The position numbers were made by a program, and so were the translations under genes. The notes under the pieces were generated by a model. It was not told the DNA's origin and searched no databases. It saw only the letters and a program-made list of their open reading frames with translations. Shown here one piece after another: positions 6,078-55,586 of a stretch of DNA of 55,586 nucleotides. This DNA comes from a virus, in IMG/VR virus record IMGVR_UViG_3300046674_000306, positions 1-55,586 of that record, one strand, 5' to 3'. Positions within the stretch are counted from its first letter, which is position 1, and every line of letters starts with the position of its first letter.

Positions 6078-6401
6078 TTAAGCGGCTGGAGCGGGTTCGG
6101 CTGGCTTATCACCGAGTGGGATAGGTGGCAGATCGGCTGCCGGCTCCGGAACGATTGGCGGGGCCTCACCCGAGGCAGGATTGCCGTCCGGATCAAGCGG
6201 CAATTCTTCTGCCGCGGCAACCGGCGCAATGACGGGCGCGACGAGATAGGCATCGATGCCGGGAGCACCGTCACGGATTTCCGCAAGCACGTCATCGTTC
6301 AACGAGCGGTCAGCGCCGTAGACGAGCTCGCTTGCGCGTTCACCGGCCAAGCGGTGCTCGCCGCCCTGCCACTGCTTGATGATGGATTCAACTGTTGGCA
6401 T
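6078..6401 (-). CDS. Hypothetical protein with Pro/Ala-rich tail
   Basis: The 107-aa protein has a helical N-terminal half (MPTVESIIKQWQGGEHRLAG) and a disordered, acidic Pro/Ala-rich C-terminal half (about residues 60-107). It lies between the large terminase and portal genes, 15 nt after terL, and is followed by an intrinsic terminator. No family recognised; perhaps a packaging or head accessory. Confidence 0.65.
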   Translation of the reverse strand: MPTVESIIKQWQGGEHRLAGERASELVYGADRSLNDDVLAEIRDGAPGIDAYLVAPVIAPVAAAEELPLDPDGNPASGEAPPIVPEPAADLPPIPLGDKPAEPAPAA

Positions 6402-9837: not shown

Positions 9838-9909
9838 TGGAGCGGAGACCCGGAATCGAACCGGGCTTGCCTGCTTGGAAGGCAGGACCTTCTCCTTGAA
9901 GACCCCCGC
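9838..9909 (-). tRNA. tRNA-Gly (UCC), compact D-arm, CCA encoded
   Basis: On the minus strand this gives acceptor GCGGGGG/UCUCCGC (two G-U pairs), anticodon arm CCUGC-CUUCCAA-GCAGG with anticodon UCC, T-arm CCCGG-UUCGAUU-CCGGG and an encoded CCA (9838-9840). The D-arm is shortened to CUUC-AAGGA-GAAG with a 5-nt loop, which may alter tertiary pairing. It sits 7 nt after the end of the 218-aa gene in the same direction. It would read GGA/GGG glycine codons. It is probably functional, but a decoy or decayed gene is possible because of the small D-loop. Confidence 0.85.
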
Positions 9910-9916
9910 GTATTCT

Positions 9917-31428: not shown

Positions 31429-31684
31429 CCAAGTGCCGTATTGGCCAGCAGCGATGGACCAGAAATCTGCCGCAGCATATTGCGGCGTCTGTGTCGAGAC
31501 CTTCAAGAAGGTTTGTCCGGTTCGTCCACTGAAATTCACACAATCCACAAGGGGAGAGCGTTATCTTCGCCAGCGTCTCGACGAATGGCTGGTTTCGATC
31601 GATCCCAACACGCAAAGTGCCGCACCAAGAAAAAGCTTGGCGGAGCGGCTTTATGGTGGTCACGTTGAAAATCACAGGGCTTAA
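31412..31684 (+). CDS. xis: Excisionase-like (Xis/AlpA) DNA-binding protein
   Basis: A 90-aa protein with a winged-helix pattern: DQKSAAAYCGVCVETFKKVC (about residues 16-35), then RYLRQRLDEWLVS, as in AlpA/Xis-type recombination directionality factors. It overlaps the start of the integrase gene by 32 nt, the normal xis-int arrangement. Start is ATG 31412 or 31418. Confidence 0.8.
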   Translation: MIMRSDQVPYWPAAMDQKSAAAYCGVCVETFKKVCPVRPLKFTQSTRGERYLRQRLDEWLVSIDPNTQSAAPRKSLAERLYGGHVENHRA

Positions 31685-32750
31685 CATCGTCAACGCTCGC
31701 GGCAAGCTATACGTCTACGCCCGCGATACCGGAGAGCGCCTGTACGGGCCATACGAGGGCACCAAGCCCGATCTCAAGCGGTTGCTGGCTGATGACAAGG
31801 ATTTCATCGCCAAGTGGAACGCTCGACGCAGACCGGAAATCAAACGCACCTATGAACCTGGAACGCTTGGCGATCTGGTGCGATGGTTCGAGAACGAATG
31901 CCCGAAATACAAAAAGCTATCTGTCGCGACCAAGAAGGATTATACCGCCGCTTTCCAGCACTTGCGCGGGTTATTCGATGCCAAACTTGAGGAATTCGAT
32001 ACCGCCGAACTATACGATCTGCGCGATAAATGCGCGATGGAGAAATGGCCGCGCTTTGCCGACAAGATGATTTCCGCCCTTTCGTCCATGTTTGGGCAAG
32101 GCGTGAAGCGCAAGAAGCTGCGGTCTAACCCGGCGCGAGGTATCGACAAAGCCCACACCTCGGACAAGAACGCGAATCGGGAATGGATAGCGGGTGAGTT
32201 CGAAGCCGCTATTGCTGACGCCCCAGCCAATCTAAAAACCATTATGATGATTGCTAGACACGCCGGCTTTCGAGGACAGACGATCGCCGCGCTCACCTGG
32301 CGGGAATATCAAGCTGACGTTTCGTATGGGAAGTGCTTCCGCGTCGTCACAAGGAAGAACAACGAGGTAGTTTGGGTGCCCGCCGCTGTCGAGCTTCAGA
32401 CGCACCTGGACGAGATCAAGGCAAACGCGACGACGATAGCCACGCACATCACGACACGAGCCGACGGGACGCCTTGGGAGAACGAGGTGCAGATGCAGAC
32501 TGAGATCAGCCATTATCTGCGGGACTTGGAAGGTAAGGGGAAGATTGGTGCTGGAACGACCCTGCATGGGCTGCGGGTTACGTATGCCGCCGACCTTAAA
32601 CGGTCTGGGGCGGATACGGGAGACATTGCCGCAGCACTAGGCGACAAGTCGGAAAGAATGGGTGCTCACTATACCCGGCATGTTGAAAACGAGGCGAAGG
32701 TTATAAGGGCTTTTGCCGGGAAAAGGTCGCGGGCCAAGAACGGTGAGTGA
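31653..32750 (+). CDS. int: Tyrosine integrase
   Basis: A 365-aa tyrosine recombinase. ATG 31653 has GGAGCGG upstream. N-terminal arm-binding and core-binding (SAM-like) domains are followed by the catalytic domain with Arg in ARHAGFRGQTIAAL, the H-x-x-R block LHGLRVTYA and the nucleophile Tyr in GAHYTRHV (about residue 340). It catalyses integration at attP, which lies directly downstream and includes a tRNA-Leu half. C-terminal residues are basic. Confidence 0.95.
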   Translation: MVVTLKITGLNIVNARGKLYVYARDTGERLYGPYEGTKPDLKRLLADDKDFIAKWNARRRPEIKRTYEPGTLGDLVRWFENECPKYKKLSVATKKDYTAAFQHLRGLFDAKLEEFDTAELYDLRDKCAMEKWPRFADKMISALSSMFGQGVKRKKLRSNPARGIDKAHTSDKNANREWIAGEFEAAIADAPANLKTIMMIARHAGFRGQTIAALTWREYQADVSYGKCFRVVTRKNNEVVWVPAAVELQTHLDEIKANATTIATHITTRADGTPWENEVQMQTEISHYLRDLEGKGKIGAGTTLHGLRVTYAADLKRSGADTGDIAAALGDKSERMGAHYTRHVENEAKVIRAFAGKRSRAKNGE

Positions 32751-32754
32751 ACAG

Positions 32755-32962
32755 GTTTTGCAAAACACGAGGGATTGTTTTGCAAACTCCGACTTGACGG
32801 AATCGCCTAAGTGGTTGATTTGAAGGGGATGCGGACGTGGCGAAACTGGTAGACGCAAGGGACTTAAAATGCCTTGCAAAGCCCATAGAATATGGATTCT
32901 TGCCGCAAAACATCTCTAAATTTTCGACTAAATACCATGGAACATAATGAGATTTGCAAAAC
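32755..32962 (+). other. attP: Phage attachment site (attP) with tRNA-Leu 5' half
   Basis: Immediately after int, 32831-32870 match the 5' half of a bacterial tRNA-Leu (UAA): GCGGACG acceptor strand, D-arm, and anticodon loop CTTAAAA; similarity stops at the anticodon 3' stem. Repeats of TTTTGCAAA(A)C flank it: 32755-32766 (palindromic GTTTTGCAAAAC), 32777-32787 and 32952-32962, candidate integrase arm sites. The core is probably at the anticodon loop of a host tRNA-Leu gene. Carrying the 5' rather than the 3' half means the integrated tRNA would have phage DNA upstream. Confidence 0.75.
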
Positions 32963-33100
32963 AATTTCAGTGCGAATTTTGAACCGTGCGTGTTGCAATA
33001 TGCAACGTGGCATGCGATAGGTGATTTGCCAATCGTGGTGAAAGCAACGGCTACTTCTTTGAAACAAGCCAACCGTTGCTGCTTGTTCCCGAATGGTTTG

Positions 33101-33250
33101 AAACAGCAGGCGTGGCGTAGAGTTCGGGTACTTCGCTTTGGGAGCCGTAGGTCGCAGGTTCAAATCCTGTCTCCCCGGGCAATCCGGGGAGTGGCGCAGT
33201 CTGGTAGCGCGACGTCACGTTCCGAGTTCGATTGTTCCCGCCTGCTGTTT
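33101..33250 (+). ncRNA. Y RNA-like RNA 1 with permuted tRNA-Pro domain
   Basis: The ends pair in a perfect 12-bp stem (33101-33112, AAACAGCAGGCG, with 33239-33250). A second stem follows (5' GAGTTCGGGTAC with 3' GTTCCGAGTTC), the likely Ro60-binding helix. Inside is a tRNA in circularly permuted order: anticodon arm with TTTGGGA, T-arm GCAGG-TTCAAAT-CCTGT (33154-33170), acceptor stem closed into a hairpin CTCCCCGG/CCGGGGAG by GCAAT (33171-33191), then D-arm GCGC-N9-GCGC (33194-33210). The sequences are those of tRNA-Pro (UGG), permuted at about position 26. TTTT follows the terminal stem. Identified as a Y RNA from architecture and the adjacent Ro60 gene. Confidence 0.85.
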
Positions 33251-33263
33251 TATTCCGTTTGGG

Positions 33264-33426
33264 TGAAAGTCATTTGGTGGATCGGTGCCGAAGATGTCGG
33301 TTACTTCCATGCTAAGGACGGGGTCGGTGGTTCGAATCCACCTGTCCAACTTCGGTTGGATGTAGCTCAGGGGTAGAGCACGTAATATCCGGTGTCGCTT
33401 GTTGCCCGGTCCTCCAAATGACTTTC
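33264..33426 (+). ncRNA. Y RNA-like RNA 2 with permuted tRNA domain
   Basis: The ends pair over 13 bp (33265-33277, GAAAGTCATTTGG, with 33414-33426). The permuted tRNA-like core has an anticodon-like arm, T-arm GGTGG-TTCGAAT-CCACC (33326-33342), acceptor hairpin GTCCAAC-TTCG-GTTGGAT (33344-33361, UUCG tetraloop), and D-arm GCTC-N7-GAGC (33365-33379). Flanking 5' and 3' strands share motifs with RNA 1 (5' TCGG-n-TACTTC; 3' TCCG ... TCG-n-TTGTT), presumably the Ro60 site. The parent tRNA is unclear. It ends 20 nt before the Ro60 start codon. Confidence 0.83.
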
Positions 33427-33445
33427 GTTCAACCTGGAGAGAAAC

Positions 33446-34747
33446 ATGCGTTTGAATACCGCAACCAATATCCCCCGCCAATTCACCCATGAAGGCGCTC
33501 CAGCGAAACATATTTCGCCAGAGCAGACTTTGCGGCGCTCCGTCCTTTCCTGCCTCCTCTGGGAGAAGGAATTCTATGAGGACGGCAAGACGATTGCTGA
33601 TCGCATCATGGAGAATGCCGCTGCGGTTTCACTTGAGACCGTCGCCGCACTTTCGGTCGAGGCCAGAAACGTCCACGGCCTTCGCCATGCGCCGCTCCTG
33701 TTGCTGCTCGATCTCGTCCGCCGTGGTGGCCCTGATGTTTCGGAGGCAATCGCCAAAACGATCCGCCGCGCCGATGAAATGGCCGAACTGATCGCGCTCT
33801 ATTGGCGGGACGGCAAGAAGCCTATTTCTAAGCAGATGAAGCTCGGGCTGGCGAAGGCGTTCGGCAAGTTCTCCGAATACCAGCTTGCGAAATATGATCG
33901 TGAAGGAGCCGTCCGCATCCGCGACGTGCTGTTCATGACACATCCGAAGCCGAAGGATGCCGAACAGGTTGCCTTGTTCAAGCGCGTTGCCGAAAAGCAA
34001 CTCGTCACCCCTGACACATGGGAAGTCGCACTCTCCGGCGGCGCCGACAAGAAGGAGACGTTTGAGCGCCTTATTCGCGAAGGCCAGTTGGGCTATCTCG
34101 CCCTGCTTCGCAATCTGCGTAATATGATGGAGGCCGGCTGTGACCGCGATCTTGTCAAGGATGCCATCGTTGCCCGCAAGGGTGCGGAACTCGTGTTCCC
34201 GTTCCGCTATGTCGCTGCGGCACGAGCTTGCCCGCAGATGGAGCCCGTCATCGATCAGGCGCTATGCGAGGCGGTAGCCTCAGGACCGCGCCTGTCGGGC
34301 ACCACGGCTGTTCTGGTGGATGTTTCGGGGTCGATGGATGTCCAGTTGTCCGCGAAGTCGGATATGAAGCGCATCGATGCCGCTGCGGCTCTCGCATCGG
34401 TTATCAATGGCGACGTTCGGGCGTTCACGTTCTCGACGTCGGTTGTCGAAGTGCCGCCTCGTCGCGGGATGGCTGGCGTTGATGCCGTGATCCGTTCGCA
34501 GCCTCACGGCGGCACATATCTTGGCGCGGCAGTTCAGTTGATCAATGAGAACGTCAAGCATGACAGGCTTATCGTGATCACCGACGAGCAGTCTGCCGAT
34601 CGCGTGCCAGACCCGATCGCGAAGAACGCGTACATGATCAACGTCGCGTCGGCAAAGCATGGTATTGGATATGGGAAGTGGTGCCACTTGGACGGGTTCT
34701 CTGAAACCGTCATTCGGTTCATCTCGGAAGTAGAGAATGACCAGTGA
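33446..34747 (+). CDS. rsr: Ro60/TROVE-domain RNA-binding protein
   Basis: A 433-aa Ro60 orthologue. Residues about 15-270 form the TROVE domain of HEAT-like repeats that makes a ring around RNA ends (HISPEQTLRRSVLSCLLWEK at the start). Residues about 285-430 are a vWA domain with a complete-looking MIDAS: DVSGSM (about 292-297), GGTYLG and VITDEQS. Ro proteins bind Y RNAs and misfolded RNAs and, with exonucleases such as PNPase, degrade structured RNA. Two Y-like RNA genes lie directly upstream. The start has GGAGAG 4 nt before ATG. A phage-borne copy is uncommon. Confidence 0.93.
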   Translation: MRLNTATNIPRQFTHEGAPAKHISPEQTLRRSVLSCLLWEKEFYEDGKTIADRIMENAAAVSLETVAALSVEARNVHGLRHAPLLLLLDLVRRGGPDVSEAIAKTIRRADEMAELIALYWRDGKKPISKQMKLGLAKAFGKFSEYQLAKYDREGAVRIRDVLFMTHPKPKDAEQVALFKRVAEKQLVTPDTWEVALSGGADKKETFERLIREGQLGYLALLRNLRNMMEAGCDRDLVKDAIVARKGAELVFPFRYVAAARACPQMEPVIDQALCEAVASGPRLSGTTAVLVDVSGSMDVQLSAKSDMKRIDAAAALASVINGDVRAFTFSTSVVEVPPRRGMAGVDAVIRSQPHGGTYLGAAVQLINENVKHDRLIVITDEQSADRVPDPIAKNAYMINVASAKHGIGYGKWCHLDGFSETVIRFISEVENDQ

Positions 34748-34922
34748 AGAACTGAAAAACGCAGCTATCAAGCTGTTCGGTGAGCGCGGGTGGCAATCCG
34801 CGCTTGCTTCACATTTAGGTGTCGATAGGACGCAGATTTGGCGCTACGTCACGAATGACAAAGTGCCGGGGCCGGTTGCGGCCGCTGTAAATTGCTGGCT
34901 GAAAAATGGAAATGCAGAATAA
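34737..34922 (+). CDS. Small HTH protein coupled to Ro60
   Basis: A 61-aa protein (MTSEELKNAAIKLFGERGWQ, then LASHLGVDRTQIWRYVTNDK) with a Cro-like HTH. Its ATG lies within the last codons of the Ro60 gene, so the two are co-expressed. It may regulate the Ro60/Y RNA cassette. The 3' end converges on the DUF1515-like gene only 3 nt away. Confidence 0.8.
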   Translation: MTSEELKNAAIKLFGERGWQSALASHLGVDRTQIWRYVTNDKVPGPVAAAVNCWLKNGNAE

Positions 34923-40152: not shown

Positions 40153-40824
40153 ATGACAAAGAACCCGAGACTTATAGATTTGAGTGGCCAGCGCTTTGGC
40201 GGCTGGGCCGTACTGAGCAAGAGCGGCAATACACCTGGCGGAGGTGCTCTTTGGCTTTGCAAATGCGACTGCGGCACGGAGCGATCTGTCCTCGGTGCTG
40301 ATCTCCGAAAGGGAAAATCAACGAATTGCGGATGCGTCGGCTACGCGCGGATTGGGGCCCTAAGGCGAACGCATGCTTCCAGTGGTACCCGGCTTCATCG
40401 CATATGGAAGAACATGCGAAAGCGGTGCTTGAACCCGAATGACCCGGGCTTCGAGAATTATGGTGGTCGCGGCATTATGATTTGCCCCGAATGGAACAAT
40501 TTTACCGCCTTCAGTGAGTGGTCTGGCAACGCAGGTTATGCGGGCAACCTATCGATCGAGCGACTTGACGTTAACGGAAACTACGAGCCAACGAATTGCG
40601 TTTGGGCGACCGCTCAGGCTCAAAATGAAAATCGGAGATTTGTGGCTAAGGCTCCAAATGGTCGTTTATGGGTTCATATTGCTCGCGACAACGGTATCTC
40701 AAACGCAGCTTATCGGTCTCGCCTCACGGATGGGTGGTCCTATCATGAAGCATCGACTTGGCCGATGGGTAAGAAGCACAAAGAAAACCCTCGGAATAAT
40801 AAGGGTCAGTATCAAGCGTCATAA
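40153..40824 (+). CDS. Free-standing homing-endonuclease-like protein (YGGRGI family)
   Basis: A 223-aa protein with an N-terminal zinc-ribbon-like part (CKCDCG ... NCGCVG, about residues 37-66), a central core (WKNMRKRCLNPND, YGGRGIMICPEW, SIERLDVNGNYEPTNCVWAT; about 85-160) and a C-terminal DNA-binding repeat region. I recognise this as a widespread phage mobile-endonuclease type, but the nuclease fold is not certain. It lies on the plus strand between minus-strand endolysin and a membrane gene, with its own ATG. A paralogue is at 54.8 kb. Confidence 0.75.
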   Translation: MTKNPRLIDLSGQRFGGWAVLSKSGNTPGGGALWLCKCDCGTERSVLGADLRKGKSTNCGCVGYARIGALRRTHASSGTRLHRIWKNMRKRCLNPNDPGFENYGGRGIMICPEWNNFTAFSEWSGNAGYAGNLSIERLDVNGNYEPTNCVWATAQAQNENRRFVAKAPNGRLWVHIARDNGISNAAYRSRLTDGWSYHEASTWPMGKKHKENPRNNKGQYQAS

Positions 40825-54322: not shown

Positions 54323-54814
54323 TCAGCAATCGCAGTTCAGCATCACGGTCTTCGTACCGCTGTCGATGAGAACCGCGCCGCCTGCGTCCGTCACGGCGCC
54401 ACAGACCTTCAGCGAGCCATCCGTGGTCGATGAGAGGGTCATTGCGTTGCCGTCGGCGCCAGAGACCAGCGCCGGGGTGATGATCGCCACGCCGCCAGTC
54501 TGTACCCAACCGTATTGACCATCGGCCGGAGCACCGACCAAGACGCCGGCAAGGGCGCCGTTGGTATCGGAGACATCAGACGAGACGGTATTGGTGACGC
54601 CGGTCGAGTTGCCACCAGGGCCGTAGAAGCCGACAGCGTTGCCGGCGGCCCCGGCGATTGCGCCCGCGCCTGCGTTGTAAAGGCAGAAGCGATACTTCTT
54701 GTTGTCATGCGACACGTAGAGGTCGCCGATGCCGGGAGCCTTGGCCGCATTGGCCCCGACCAGATCAGCCGCGGCATAAACCGCGTCAAGGATTGCACCT
54801 ACAAAAGCAGTCAT
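54323..54814 (-). CDS. Putative capsid decoration protein
   Basis: A 163-aa Ala/Gly/Thr-rich protein, beta-rich with two Cys residues in a CDC end (MLNCDC). It lies directly downstream of the capsid gene apart from the endonuclease, the usual place for decoration or head-stabilising proteins. Its ATG overlaps the endonuclease stop by 4 nt (54811-54814). Function inferred from context. Confidence 0.65.
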   Translation of the reverse strand: MTAFVGAILDAVYAAADLVGANAAKAPGIGDLYVSHDNKKYRFCLYNAGAGAIAGAAGNAVGFYGPGGNSTGVTNTVSSDVSDTNGALAGVLVGAPADGQYGWVQTGGVAIITPALVSGADGNAMTLSSTTDGSLKVCGAVTDAGGAVLIDSGTKTVMLNCDC

Positions 54815-55488
54815 AGGAGGTTCAGCTTTCTCCGGCGCTTGCCGGTATTTTGAAGAGGTTCAGTGAGAGCCCGGTCGACTGTCCACCCATGGTCAAGACG
54901 ACCGATGATGACGCTTTTCCCGAACCCGGTGTAATGGCCCCATCCGGTCAACGTCCTCGTTTCACCATTGAAAGTGATGAGGGTGTTCGTCCGTCTGTTG
55001 CTGGCCTGTACGAGCCTAGATGCCCAAATGACATTTCCAGGCTCATACCCTTTTTCATTGTCGACTCTTTCCAAGGTCGCGTCTTTCGGACGGTCGCCCA
55101 CGTCGCGATGGAAGTTTTCGAAGAGGTGCCAAGCTGGGCAAAGAGTTATCCCTCGGCCACCGTAGGAGGCAAAATGCGTGCTCTTCGGGTTTGTGCATCG
55201 CTGCTTCATGTTGGACCAAATACGGTATTCCTCCGATCTGGACTTCCCATGCGTGGCGTCATCCTTCCGCATCTCTTTCGTAATGCATCCGCATGACTTT
55301 GTTGACCCACGCCCCAAACTTTGACCGCTGGTCACAAGCTTGTTTCCGCAATCGCAAACACATTCCCATTGAGCACGCACCGCGCCCGAAGGCTCGATCT
55401 TGTTTTCGGCACGCGACGTTACGACAAGGCGTCCGTGGCGTTCTCCAACACGATCAACAACTGACATTCTTCTAGGTTTCGTAAACAT
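54811..55488 (-). CDS. Free-standing homing-endonuclease-like protein (YGGRGI family)
   Basis: A 225-aa paralogue of the 40.2 kb protein: zinc-ribbon-like N-terminus (CVCDCGNKL ... SCGCIT), core WSNMKQRCTNPKS, YGGRGITLCPAW, ATLERVDNEKGYEPGNVIWA, and a C-terminal DNA-binding region (TLTGWGHYTGFGKS). Start ATG 55488 has GGAGAG just upstream; a GTG at 55500 is less likely. It begins 78 nt after the capsid stop on the closed circle; ATTATA at 55515-55520 (TATAAT on the minus strand) may be its own -10. It ends in an ATGA overlap with the decoration gene. Confidence 0.75.
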   Translation of the reverse strand: MFTKPRRMSVVDRVGERHGRLVVTSRAENKIEPSGAVRAQWECVCDCGNKLVTSGQSLGRGSTKSCGCITKEMRKDDATHGKSRSEEYRIWSNMKQRCTNPKSTHFASYGGRGITLCPAWHLFENFHRDVGDRPKDATLERVDNEKGYEPGNVIWASRLVQASNRRTNTLITFNGETRTLTGWGHYTGFGKSVIIGRLDHGWTVDRALTEPLQNTGKRRRKLNLL

Positions 55489-55586
55489 AAATCTCTCCAC
55501 TTTACAGCTTCGAGATTATACTATACGAATTCCCACCTGATGGAAAGAAAAAGCTGCAAAATCAATCACGATGCGTCGAGCAAAAC
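55460..55586. repeat. Direct terminal repeat, right copy
   Basis: Identical to 1-127. It contains the 5' end of the 225-aa endonuclease gene and the 3' end of the capsid gene, showing that the two are 78 nt apart on the circle. Removing one copy gives a 55,459-bp circular map. Confidence 0.95.

What the first reader, a model, noticed from the sequence alone, without database searches (positions are those of the whole stretch)
33101..34922. Phage-encoded Ro60 with two tandem Y RNA-like genes beside attP
Seen: two RNA units, each with a 12-14 bp end-to-end stem closing a tRNA-like domain, lie directly upstream of a complete TROVE/vWA protein gene with a MIDAS motif, then a small HTH gene overlapping it. 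Known: bacterial Ro60 binds Y RNAs, some of which mimic tRNA, and works with exonucleases. Inference: the cassette is a self-contained RNA-quality-control or RNA-degradation module carried as a prophage moron; it could tune host RNA decay, protect phage RNA, or serve as a defence or counter-defence device. Two divergent Y RNAs in one cassette suggest division of labour.
Basis: partly seen in the sequence, partly recalled or inferred. Interest (0 to 1): 0.92.

Follow-up and report, generated by a model that had tools for sequence, protein, structure and literature searches.

The report
Phage Ro60 with three Y RNAs
This temperate phage carries its own Ro60 RNA-binding ring protein, three partner Y RNAs (two of them shaped like tRNAs cut open and rejoined, anticodon loop included) and a small DNA-binding protein; such sets are known from bacteria and phages, but the anticodon loop suggests testable ideas about what they do.

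Summary
The finding is real and larger than described. At 33446-34747 lies a full Ro60/Rsr gene (TROVE plus vWA; the closest solved fold is Ro60 of Thermus phage phiLo). Upstream are three Y RNAs, not two. Two tRNA-like ones follow at 33101-33250 and 33266-33425. Covariance models built without the window find them at E 7e-14, 2e-32 and 6e-32, with strong compensatory pairing. Model hits accompany Ro60 in 75 of 90 viral and 70 of 75 bacterial relatives, always on its strand. The small HTH gene after Ro60 is the only recurrent neighbour. The tRNA-like RNAs belong with YrlA (Rfam RF02553, below its cut-off): circularly permuted tRNAs. Beyond the Rfam consensus they also form an anticodon arm whose stem is split by the Ro60-type stem, with a 7-nt loop. 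RNA1 put back in tRNA order reads as tRNA-Pro(UGG). Gamma-proteobacterial YrlAs have the same loop, so it is a family feature. Phage-borne Ro60 with YrlA is already reported, so this is a new member of a known kind. Most likely role: a Ro60-Y RNA particle steering host PNPase-type RNA decay (inferred). A tRNA decoy is the more novel rival.

The parts
31617..32750 (+). tyrosine integrase gene (context)
   Evidence: Pfam Phage_integrase 9.6e-9; phrog_1 integrase 5e-25
32831..32870 (+). attP-like core: 5' part of tRNA-Leu(UAA) through the anticodon loop (context)
   Evidence: single copy in the window, no chance matches in shuffles; 38 of 40 bases identical to a site in a Caulobacter genome
   Evidence: model R2 built without the window: match 33019-33107, 54.5 bits, E 7.3e-14; coordinates; R2 pairs 95.8% formed, 119 double-change cells vs 35.8 shuffled
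33101..33250 (+). tRNA-like Y RNA 1 (YrlA type): P1 33101-33112/33239-33250, P2 33120-33127/33222-33229, anticodon-like loop 33137-33143 (UUUGGGA), T arm 33154-33170, capped acceptor hairpin 33171-33191, D arm 33194-33210
   Evidence: R1 116.4 bits, E 1.8e-32; Rfam YrlA 48.0 bits, E 1.7e-9, below the gathering score 69; fold z -3.2; reads as tRNA-Pro(UGG) when put back in order
33266..33425 (+). tRNA-like Y RNA 2 (YrlA type): P1 33266-33277/33414-33425, P2 33293-33300/33389-33396, anticodon-like loop 33309-33315 (AUGCUAA), T arm 33326-33342, UUCG-capped acceptor hairpin 33343-33362, D arm 33365-33379
   Evidence: R1 114.6 bits, E 5.8e-32; Rfam YrlA core 27.6 bits, E 0.0013, below gathering; fold z -4.6; nearest real tRNA is tRNA-Gly(GCC)
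33446..34747 (+). Ro60/Rsr protein gene (TROVE ring plus vWA with MIDAS), 433 aa
   Evidence: Pfam TROVE 1.4e-11; phrog_850 RNA-binding protein 1.2e-50; AlphaFold model pLDDT 85.5 matches Thermus phage phiLo Ro60 E 2e-18, Xenopus and human Ro60 and D. radiodurans Rsr
34737..34922 (+). small HTH protein gene (61 aa) overlapping the end of Ro60; likely regulator of the cassette
   Evidence: weak YdaS-like hit below the Pfam cut-off, phrog_12501 HTH 4.8e-4; homologues downstream of Ro60 in 23 other viral loci and 22 bacterial loci

Best explanation
A phage-borne Ro60-Y RNA cassette: three tandem Y RNAs, Ro60 and a small HTH protein. SHOWN by sequence: Ro60 is a full TROVE/vWA protein; the three RNAs share a covarying two-part stem with conserved internal-loop letters; two of them carry a circularly permuted tRNA in the order anticodon loop - T arm - acceptor hairpin closed by a short loop - D arm, with the anticodon stem split by the Ro60-type stem. 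INFERRED: the common stem is the Ro60-binding handle. The tRNA-like body cannot be charged, because its acceptor end is sealed, so it acts as an adaptor or gate that holds a tRNA- or RNA-binding host enzyme, most likely the exoribonuclease PNPase, next to the Ro60 ring, as in the RYPER particle of Deinococcus. In the lysogen or during infection this would steer decay or quality control of structured RNAs (rRNA, tRNA and tRNA fragments). The HTH protein probably controls transcription of the cassette.
For: Ro60 identity. Y RNAs: models made without the window find them at E 1.8e-32, 5.8e-32 and 7.3e-14 with compensatory changes far above shuffled and slid controls. Linkage: R1 hits at E <= 1e-8 in 75/90 viral and 70/75 bacterial Ro60 loci with enough upstream sequence, all on the Ro60 strand, and R2 hits in most of the rest. 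The HTH gene is the only recurrent neighbour. Published precedent for the mechanism: Rsr tethered by Y RNA to PNPase, and YrlA modified by DusA and TruB (PMC8394870; PMC7790460).
Against: No expression, binding or phenotype data here. The PNPase link is taken from other species and, per PMC7790460, had been studied only in D. radiodurans, whose Ro60 gave weak sequence similarity here, although its fold matches. Neither Rfam YrlA hit in the window reaches the gathering score. Nothing in the cassette itself points to PNPase rather than another partner.
Confidence: 0.6

Rival explanations
1. tRNA decoy: the complete tRNA mimics, with anticodon loop but sealed acceptor end, bind host tRNA-recognising enzymes (anticodon nucleases of defence or toxin systems, or modification enzymes) and shield real tRNAs during infection, with Ro60 stabilising the decoys.
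For: Split anticodon stem with covariation and 7-nt loops: in 87 unique RNAs, 27-43 paired 84/87, 28-42 83/87, 30'-40 70/87, 31'-39 75/87, each above all 1000 shuffles; U33 in 73/87 of the unselected set; R37 64/67 and A38 62/67 in class I. RNA1 reads as tRNA-Pro(UGG). Large phages carry many Y RNAs (CcrColossus about 8 hits). PMC7790460 proposes that YrlA could competitively inhibit the anticodon nuclease, which does not cut it.
Against: The same loops occur in bacterial YrlA, so this is not a phage speciality. Anticodon and tRNA body agree in isotype in only 4 of 82 RNAs, no better than shuffled, so most are not copies of one tRNA. No PADLOC match. Two thirds of the loops (54/82) are not identical to a loop of the two reference genomes.
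Confidence: 0.15
2. RNA repair platform: Ro60 and the Y RNAs hold broken tRNAs for host or phage RNA ligases.
For: In some bacteria rsr and Y RNA genes sit in rtcBA operons (PMC7790460); the jumbo-phage survey discusses phage TROVE proteins among RNA repair systems (PMC7824862).
Against: Apart from the HTH gene, no recurrent conserved gene was found within 3 kb of Ro60 in the viral loci, so no recurrent ligase or RtcA/B.
Confidence: 0.1
3. The RNAs are unusual permuted tRNA genes that mature to working tRNAs.
For: Put back in order, both give full cloverleaves that ARAGORN accepts; annotators have called related RNAs tRNA genes.
Against: The acceptor stem is sealed by short loops with no CCA end in the parsed units; the Ro60-type stem with conserved internal loop covaries; the short sister RNA has no tRNA part; the RNAs go with Ro60 genes.
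Confidence: 0.02

Closest known systems
YrlA / Rsr (bacterial Ro60-Y RNA; Rfam RF02553; described by Chen et al. 2014, RNA)
   Same: Ro60 gene with upstream Y RNAs on the same strand; long closing stem; T arm - capped acceptor hairpin - D arm order; the additional short Y RNA recalls the yrlB-yrlA pair of Salmonella
   Different: Both RNAs score below the Rfam gathering score (48.0 and 27.6 against 69). They carry an anticodon-like loop that the Rfam consensus lacks, but gamma-proteobacterial YrlAs (one just above the cut-off) carry it too, as an insert
Ro60 of Thermus phage phiLo (PDB 9kop, 9l5y)
   Same: phage-encoded Ro60 with the same fold, Foldseek E 2e-18
   Different: 26% identity; no R1 or R2 match was seen at the phiLo locus in the searches made
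Ro60 cassettes of Xanthomonas phage 10KY502B, Caulobacter phage CcrColossus, Brevundimonas phage Kikimora
   Same: 57-63% identical Ro60 with R1-type Y RNAs upstream
   Different: more Y RNAs in the large phages; some Y RNAs there are annotated as tRNAs; no homologue of this integrase was seen beside them
RYPER of Deinococcus radiodurans (Rsr-Y RNA-PNPase)
   Same: protein fold (2nvo among the top Foldseek hits) and the proposed tether logic
   Different: partner enzyme not shown here; sequence similarity weak (E 2e-7 for 2nvo)

Membership tests
Ro60/Rsr (TROVE proteins) | TROVE domain over the curated cut-off and Ro60 fold | tested here: met
   Pfam 44.7 bits against 23; Foldseek to Ro60/Rsr structures E 2e-18 to 7e-10
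Ro60/Rsr (TROVE proteins) | vWA domain with MIDAS motif | tested here: met
   PF05762 and PF13519 over cut-off; D292, S294, S296 and D380 invariant in A3
Ro60/Rsr (TROVE proteins) | binds Y RNA | not testable with these tools
   needs a binding assay
YrlA RNA (RF02553) | score at or over Rfam's gathering score (69 bits) | tested here: not met
   48.0 and 27.6 bits, E 1.7e-9 and 0.0013
YrlA RNA (RF02553) | architecture: Ro60-type closing stem, T arm, capped acceptor hairpin, D arm, short stem | tested here: met
   R1 model and pair counts; R1 also finds the gamma YrlA loci L196-L198
YrlA RNA (RF02553) | encoded next to a Ro60 gene | tested here: met
   RNA2 ends 20 bases before the Ro60 start codon; linkage across relatives
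YrlA RNA (RF02553) | carries tRNA modifications (D, pseudouridine) | not testable with these tools
   needs RNA; reported for YrlA in PMC8394870
RYPER (Ro60-Y RNA-PNPase machine) | Y RNA tethers PNPase | not testable with these tools
   needs pull-down or structure
functional (permuted) tRNA gene | free acceptor end that can carry CCA | tested here: not met
   acceptor hairpins sealed by a GCAAU and a UUCG loop
known anti-phage defence system (PADLOC) | match to a PADLOC model | tested here: not met
   no family for Ro60 or the HTH protein up to E 0.1

The most novel reading that the evidence does not exclude
YrlA-type Y RNAs are complete tRNA mimics, anticodon arm included, whose anticodon stem is split open to take in the Ro60 handle. 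In phages they work as Ro60-stabilised decoys or bait for enzymes that read the anticodon loop (anticodon nucleases of host defence, or position-37 modification enzymes), with several loop types per phage for different targets.
Probability: 0.15. Interest if true: 0.78.

Novelty: new member of a known kind. Interest (0 to 1): 0.52.

Why it matters
Why phages carry Ro60 is open: many phage genomes have the gene, mostly annotated as hypothetical or RNA-binding protein, with the Y RNAs unannotated or called tRNAs. This cassette is compact, complete and on a temperate phage, so it can be deleted and tested. The anticodon loop gives a new handle: it predicts which tRNA enzymes should bind a Y RNA and lets the tether and decoy ideas be told apart with loop mutants. 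The two models built here would also let phage and bacterial genomes be re-annotated.

Tried and rejected
Whole-tRNA copying as a general rule: RNA1 looks like a captured tRNA-Pro, but across 82 RNAs anticodon isotype and nearest body isotype agree in only 4 (shuffled mean 5.1), so rejected as a rule. Anticodon loop as a phage-only invention: rejected, gamma-proteobacterial YrlA have it. A fully closed 5-bp anticodon hairpin: the outer pairs 27'-43 and 28'-42 do not beat shuffles, while 27-43 and 28-42 with the D-arm flank do, so the split stem is preferred. An early regular-tRNA filter wrongly dropped real Y RNAs; covariance models replaced it. Loop preference for U36-A37 or G36-G37 (t6A and m1G37 substrate motifs): 36/51 non-redundant against 18/42 natural loops, p 0.011, kinship not corrected; kept only as a hint. 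Intrinsic terminator and sigma-70 promoter: no terminator-like site, one promoter-like match against 0.8 expected. The key papers (Chen 2014, Wang 2018, Sim and Wolin 2018, Chen 2013) are not held.

Full report
What was checked. The window is a 55,586-base virus record. PHROGs matches show a tailed temperate phage: portal protein, terminase, Erf-like annealing protein, RecE-like exonuclease, NinB, endolysin, integrase. After the integrase lies a 40-base piece of tRNA-Leu(UAA), 32831-32870, present once in the window and matching 38 of 40 bases of a site in a Caulobacter genome. This is consistent with attP; integration itself was not shown.

The protein. ORF 33446-34747 (433 aa) has TROVE and vWA matches over the Pfam cut-offs. 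Its AlphaFold model (pLDDT 85.5) best matches Ro60 of Thermus phage phiLo (9kop and 9l5y, E 2e-18), then vertebrate Ro60 and Deinococcus Rsr. Relatives are common in phages: 89 records at E up to 1e-3. In a quick tree the window sits in a starred clade of 11 viral rows and one Mesorhizobium genome row. Chromosomal Caulobacteraceae versions form a separate group (support 94), and viral and genome rows interleave (at least 7 changes forced by starred branches).

The RNAs. A model of 34 tRNA-like RNAs from other loci (A4, R1) has 37 pairs, 94.9% of cells paired, and 30 pairs with changes on both sides; shuffles and slid controls are far lower. It finds only RNA1 and RNA2 in the window, at E 1.8e-32 and 5.8e-32. 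While reading the flank I noticed the same conserved motif upstream. A second model of 24 short RNAs (A7, R2) finds a third Y RNA at 33019-33107 (core 33029-33096), E 7.3e-14. So three Y RNAs lie head to tail, 4 and 15 bases apart, and the last ends 20 bases before the Ro60 start codon (coordinates).

Linkage. With at least 700 bases of upstream sequence, 75 of 90 viral and 70 of 75 bacterial Ro60 loci have an R1 match at E <= 1e-8, all on the Ro60 strand. R2 finds RNAs in most of the others. These loci were picked for similarity to this Ro60, so the figures hold for this branch, not for all Ro60. The HTH gene follows Ro60 in 23 other viral loci and 22 bacterial loci and is the only recurrent conserved neighbour.

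The tRNA mimicry. The order T arm - capped acceptor hairpin - D arm is that of YrlA, already known to be a circularly permuted tRNA in its crystal structure (PMC11472068). Positions taken by distance from the T loop and D arm, not by pairing, show more: in 87 unique RNAs, nucleotides 27 and 28 after the D arm pair with 43 and 42 (84/87 and 83/87), and two nucleotides from the 5' linker pair with 40 and 39 (70/87 and 75/87), each above all 1000 shuffles. Position 41 pairs with either side. Together they make a split anticodon stem with a 7-nt loop; the Ro60-type stem enters at the split. Shuffles keep column make-up but not kinship, so the counts are not probabilities. In the 67 RNAs of this class, chosen for U33 and both inner pairs, position 37 is a purine in 64 and position 38 is A in 62. 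A second class has a full stem with the D-arm flank and an open loop. RNA1 in tRNA order is a 73-nt tRNA-Pro(UGG): 58 of 73 identical to alphaproteobacterial tRNA-Pro, score 43 against at most 13.5 for shuffles. RNA2 is nearest to tRNA-Gly(GCC) but has the loop AUGCUAA. Over the family, anticodon and body do not agree beyond chance. Gamma-proteobacterial YrlA RNAs, including one just above the Rfam cut-off (L197), have the same loop, shown as an insert by Rfam. It is therefore a family feature absent from the Rfam consensus. Whether Chen 2014 or Wang 2018 already describe it I could not read.

Mechanism. Shown: cassette content, RNA structure by covariation, linkage. Inferred from published work: the common stem binds Ro60, and the tRNA-like part holds an effector such as PNPase (PMC8394870, PMC7790460). 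The sealed acceptor rules out charging of the RNA as it stands. The decoy idea follows a suggestion in PMC7790460 and gains some support from the anticodon loop, but has no direct evidence.

Novelty. Phage-encoded Ro60 and phage YrlA are reported (PMC7765460 citing Sim and Wolin 2018; PMC7824862). From memory, the abstract of Chen 2014 gives Y RNAs near Ro60 in more than 250 bacterial and phage species. The cassette is a new member of a known kind.

Noticed in passing
L033 2831-2898; L034 2766-2840; L035 2128-2195: Public records call Y RNAs tRNA genes: tRNA-Thr in Xanthomonas phage 10KY502B, tRNA-Ser in Brevundimonas phage Kikimora, tRNA-Gln in CcrColossus. Each overlaps a strong R1 match or an R1 seed sequence.
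   Followed up: partly
L035 1711-2922: CcrColossus has about eight Y RNA matches (long and short) in tandem upstream of its Ro60.
   Followed up: partly
L016 4338-4490; L026 4352-4658: In these two viral loci Y RNAs lie downstream of Ro60.
   Followed up: no
L034 6281-6747: Brevundimonas phage Kikimora carries a permuted alphaproteobacterial-type tmRNA (RF04321, 57.7 bits), with a tRNA-Cys annotated just upstream at 6143-6229.
   Followed up: no
L196 775-1633 (- strand): One gamma-proteobacterial genome (G244) has four YrlA RNAs in a cluster.
   Followed up: no
window 33111-33178: The 5' part of the tRNA-like Y RNAs (GUAG..CGGUUAC) can also be read as a D arm in normal tRNA order (weak tRNA match, 19.8 bits, for RNA1; ARAGORN calls several relatives tRNAs). 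This may be a trace of origin from a tandem tRNA pair.
   Followed up: partly
window 9838-9911 (- strand): A tRNA-Gly(TCC) gene of the phage, far from the cassette.
   Followed up: no
window 40153-40824 (+) and 54811-55500 (-): Two HNH endonuclease genes of the same PHROG (phrog_374).
   Followed up: no
L186 5001-5164: Streptomyces phage BRock has a manA RNA match just below its gathering score (49.7 against 55.2 bits) beside its Ro60 and tRNA array.
   Followed up: no
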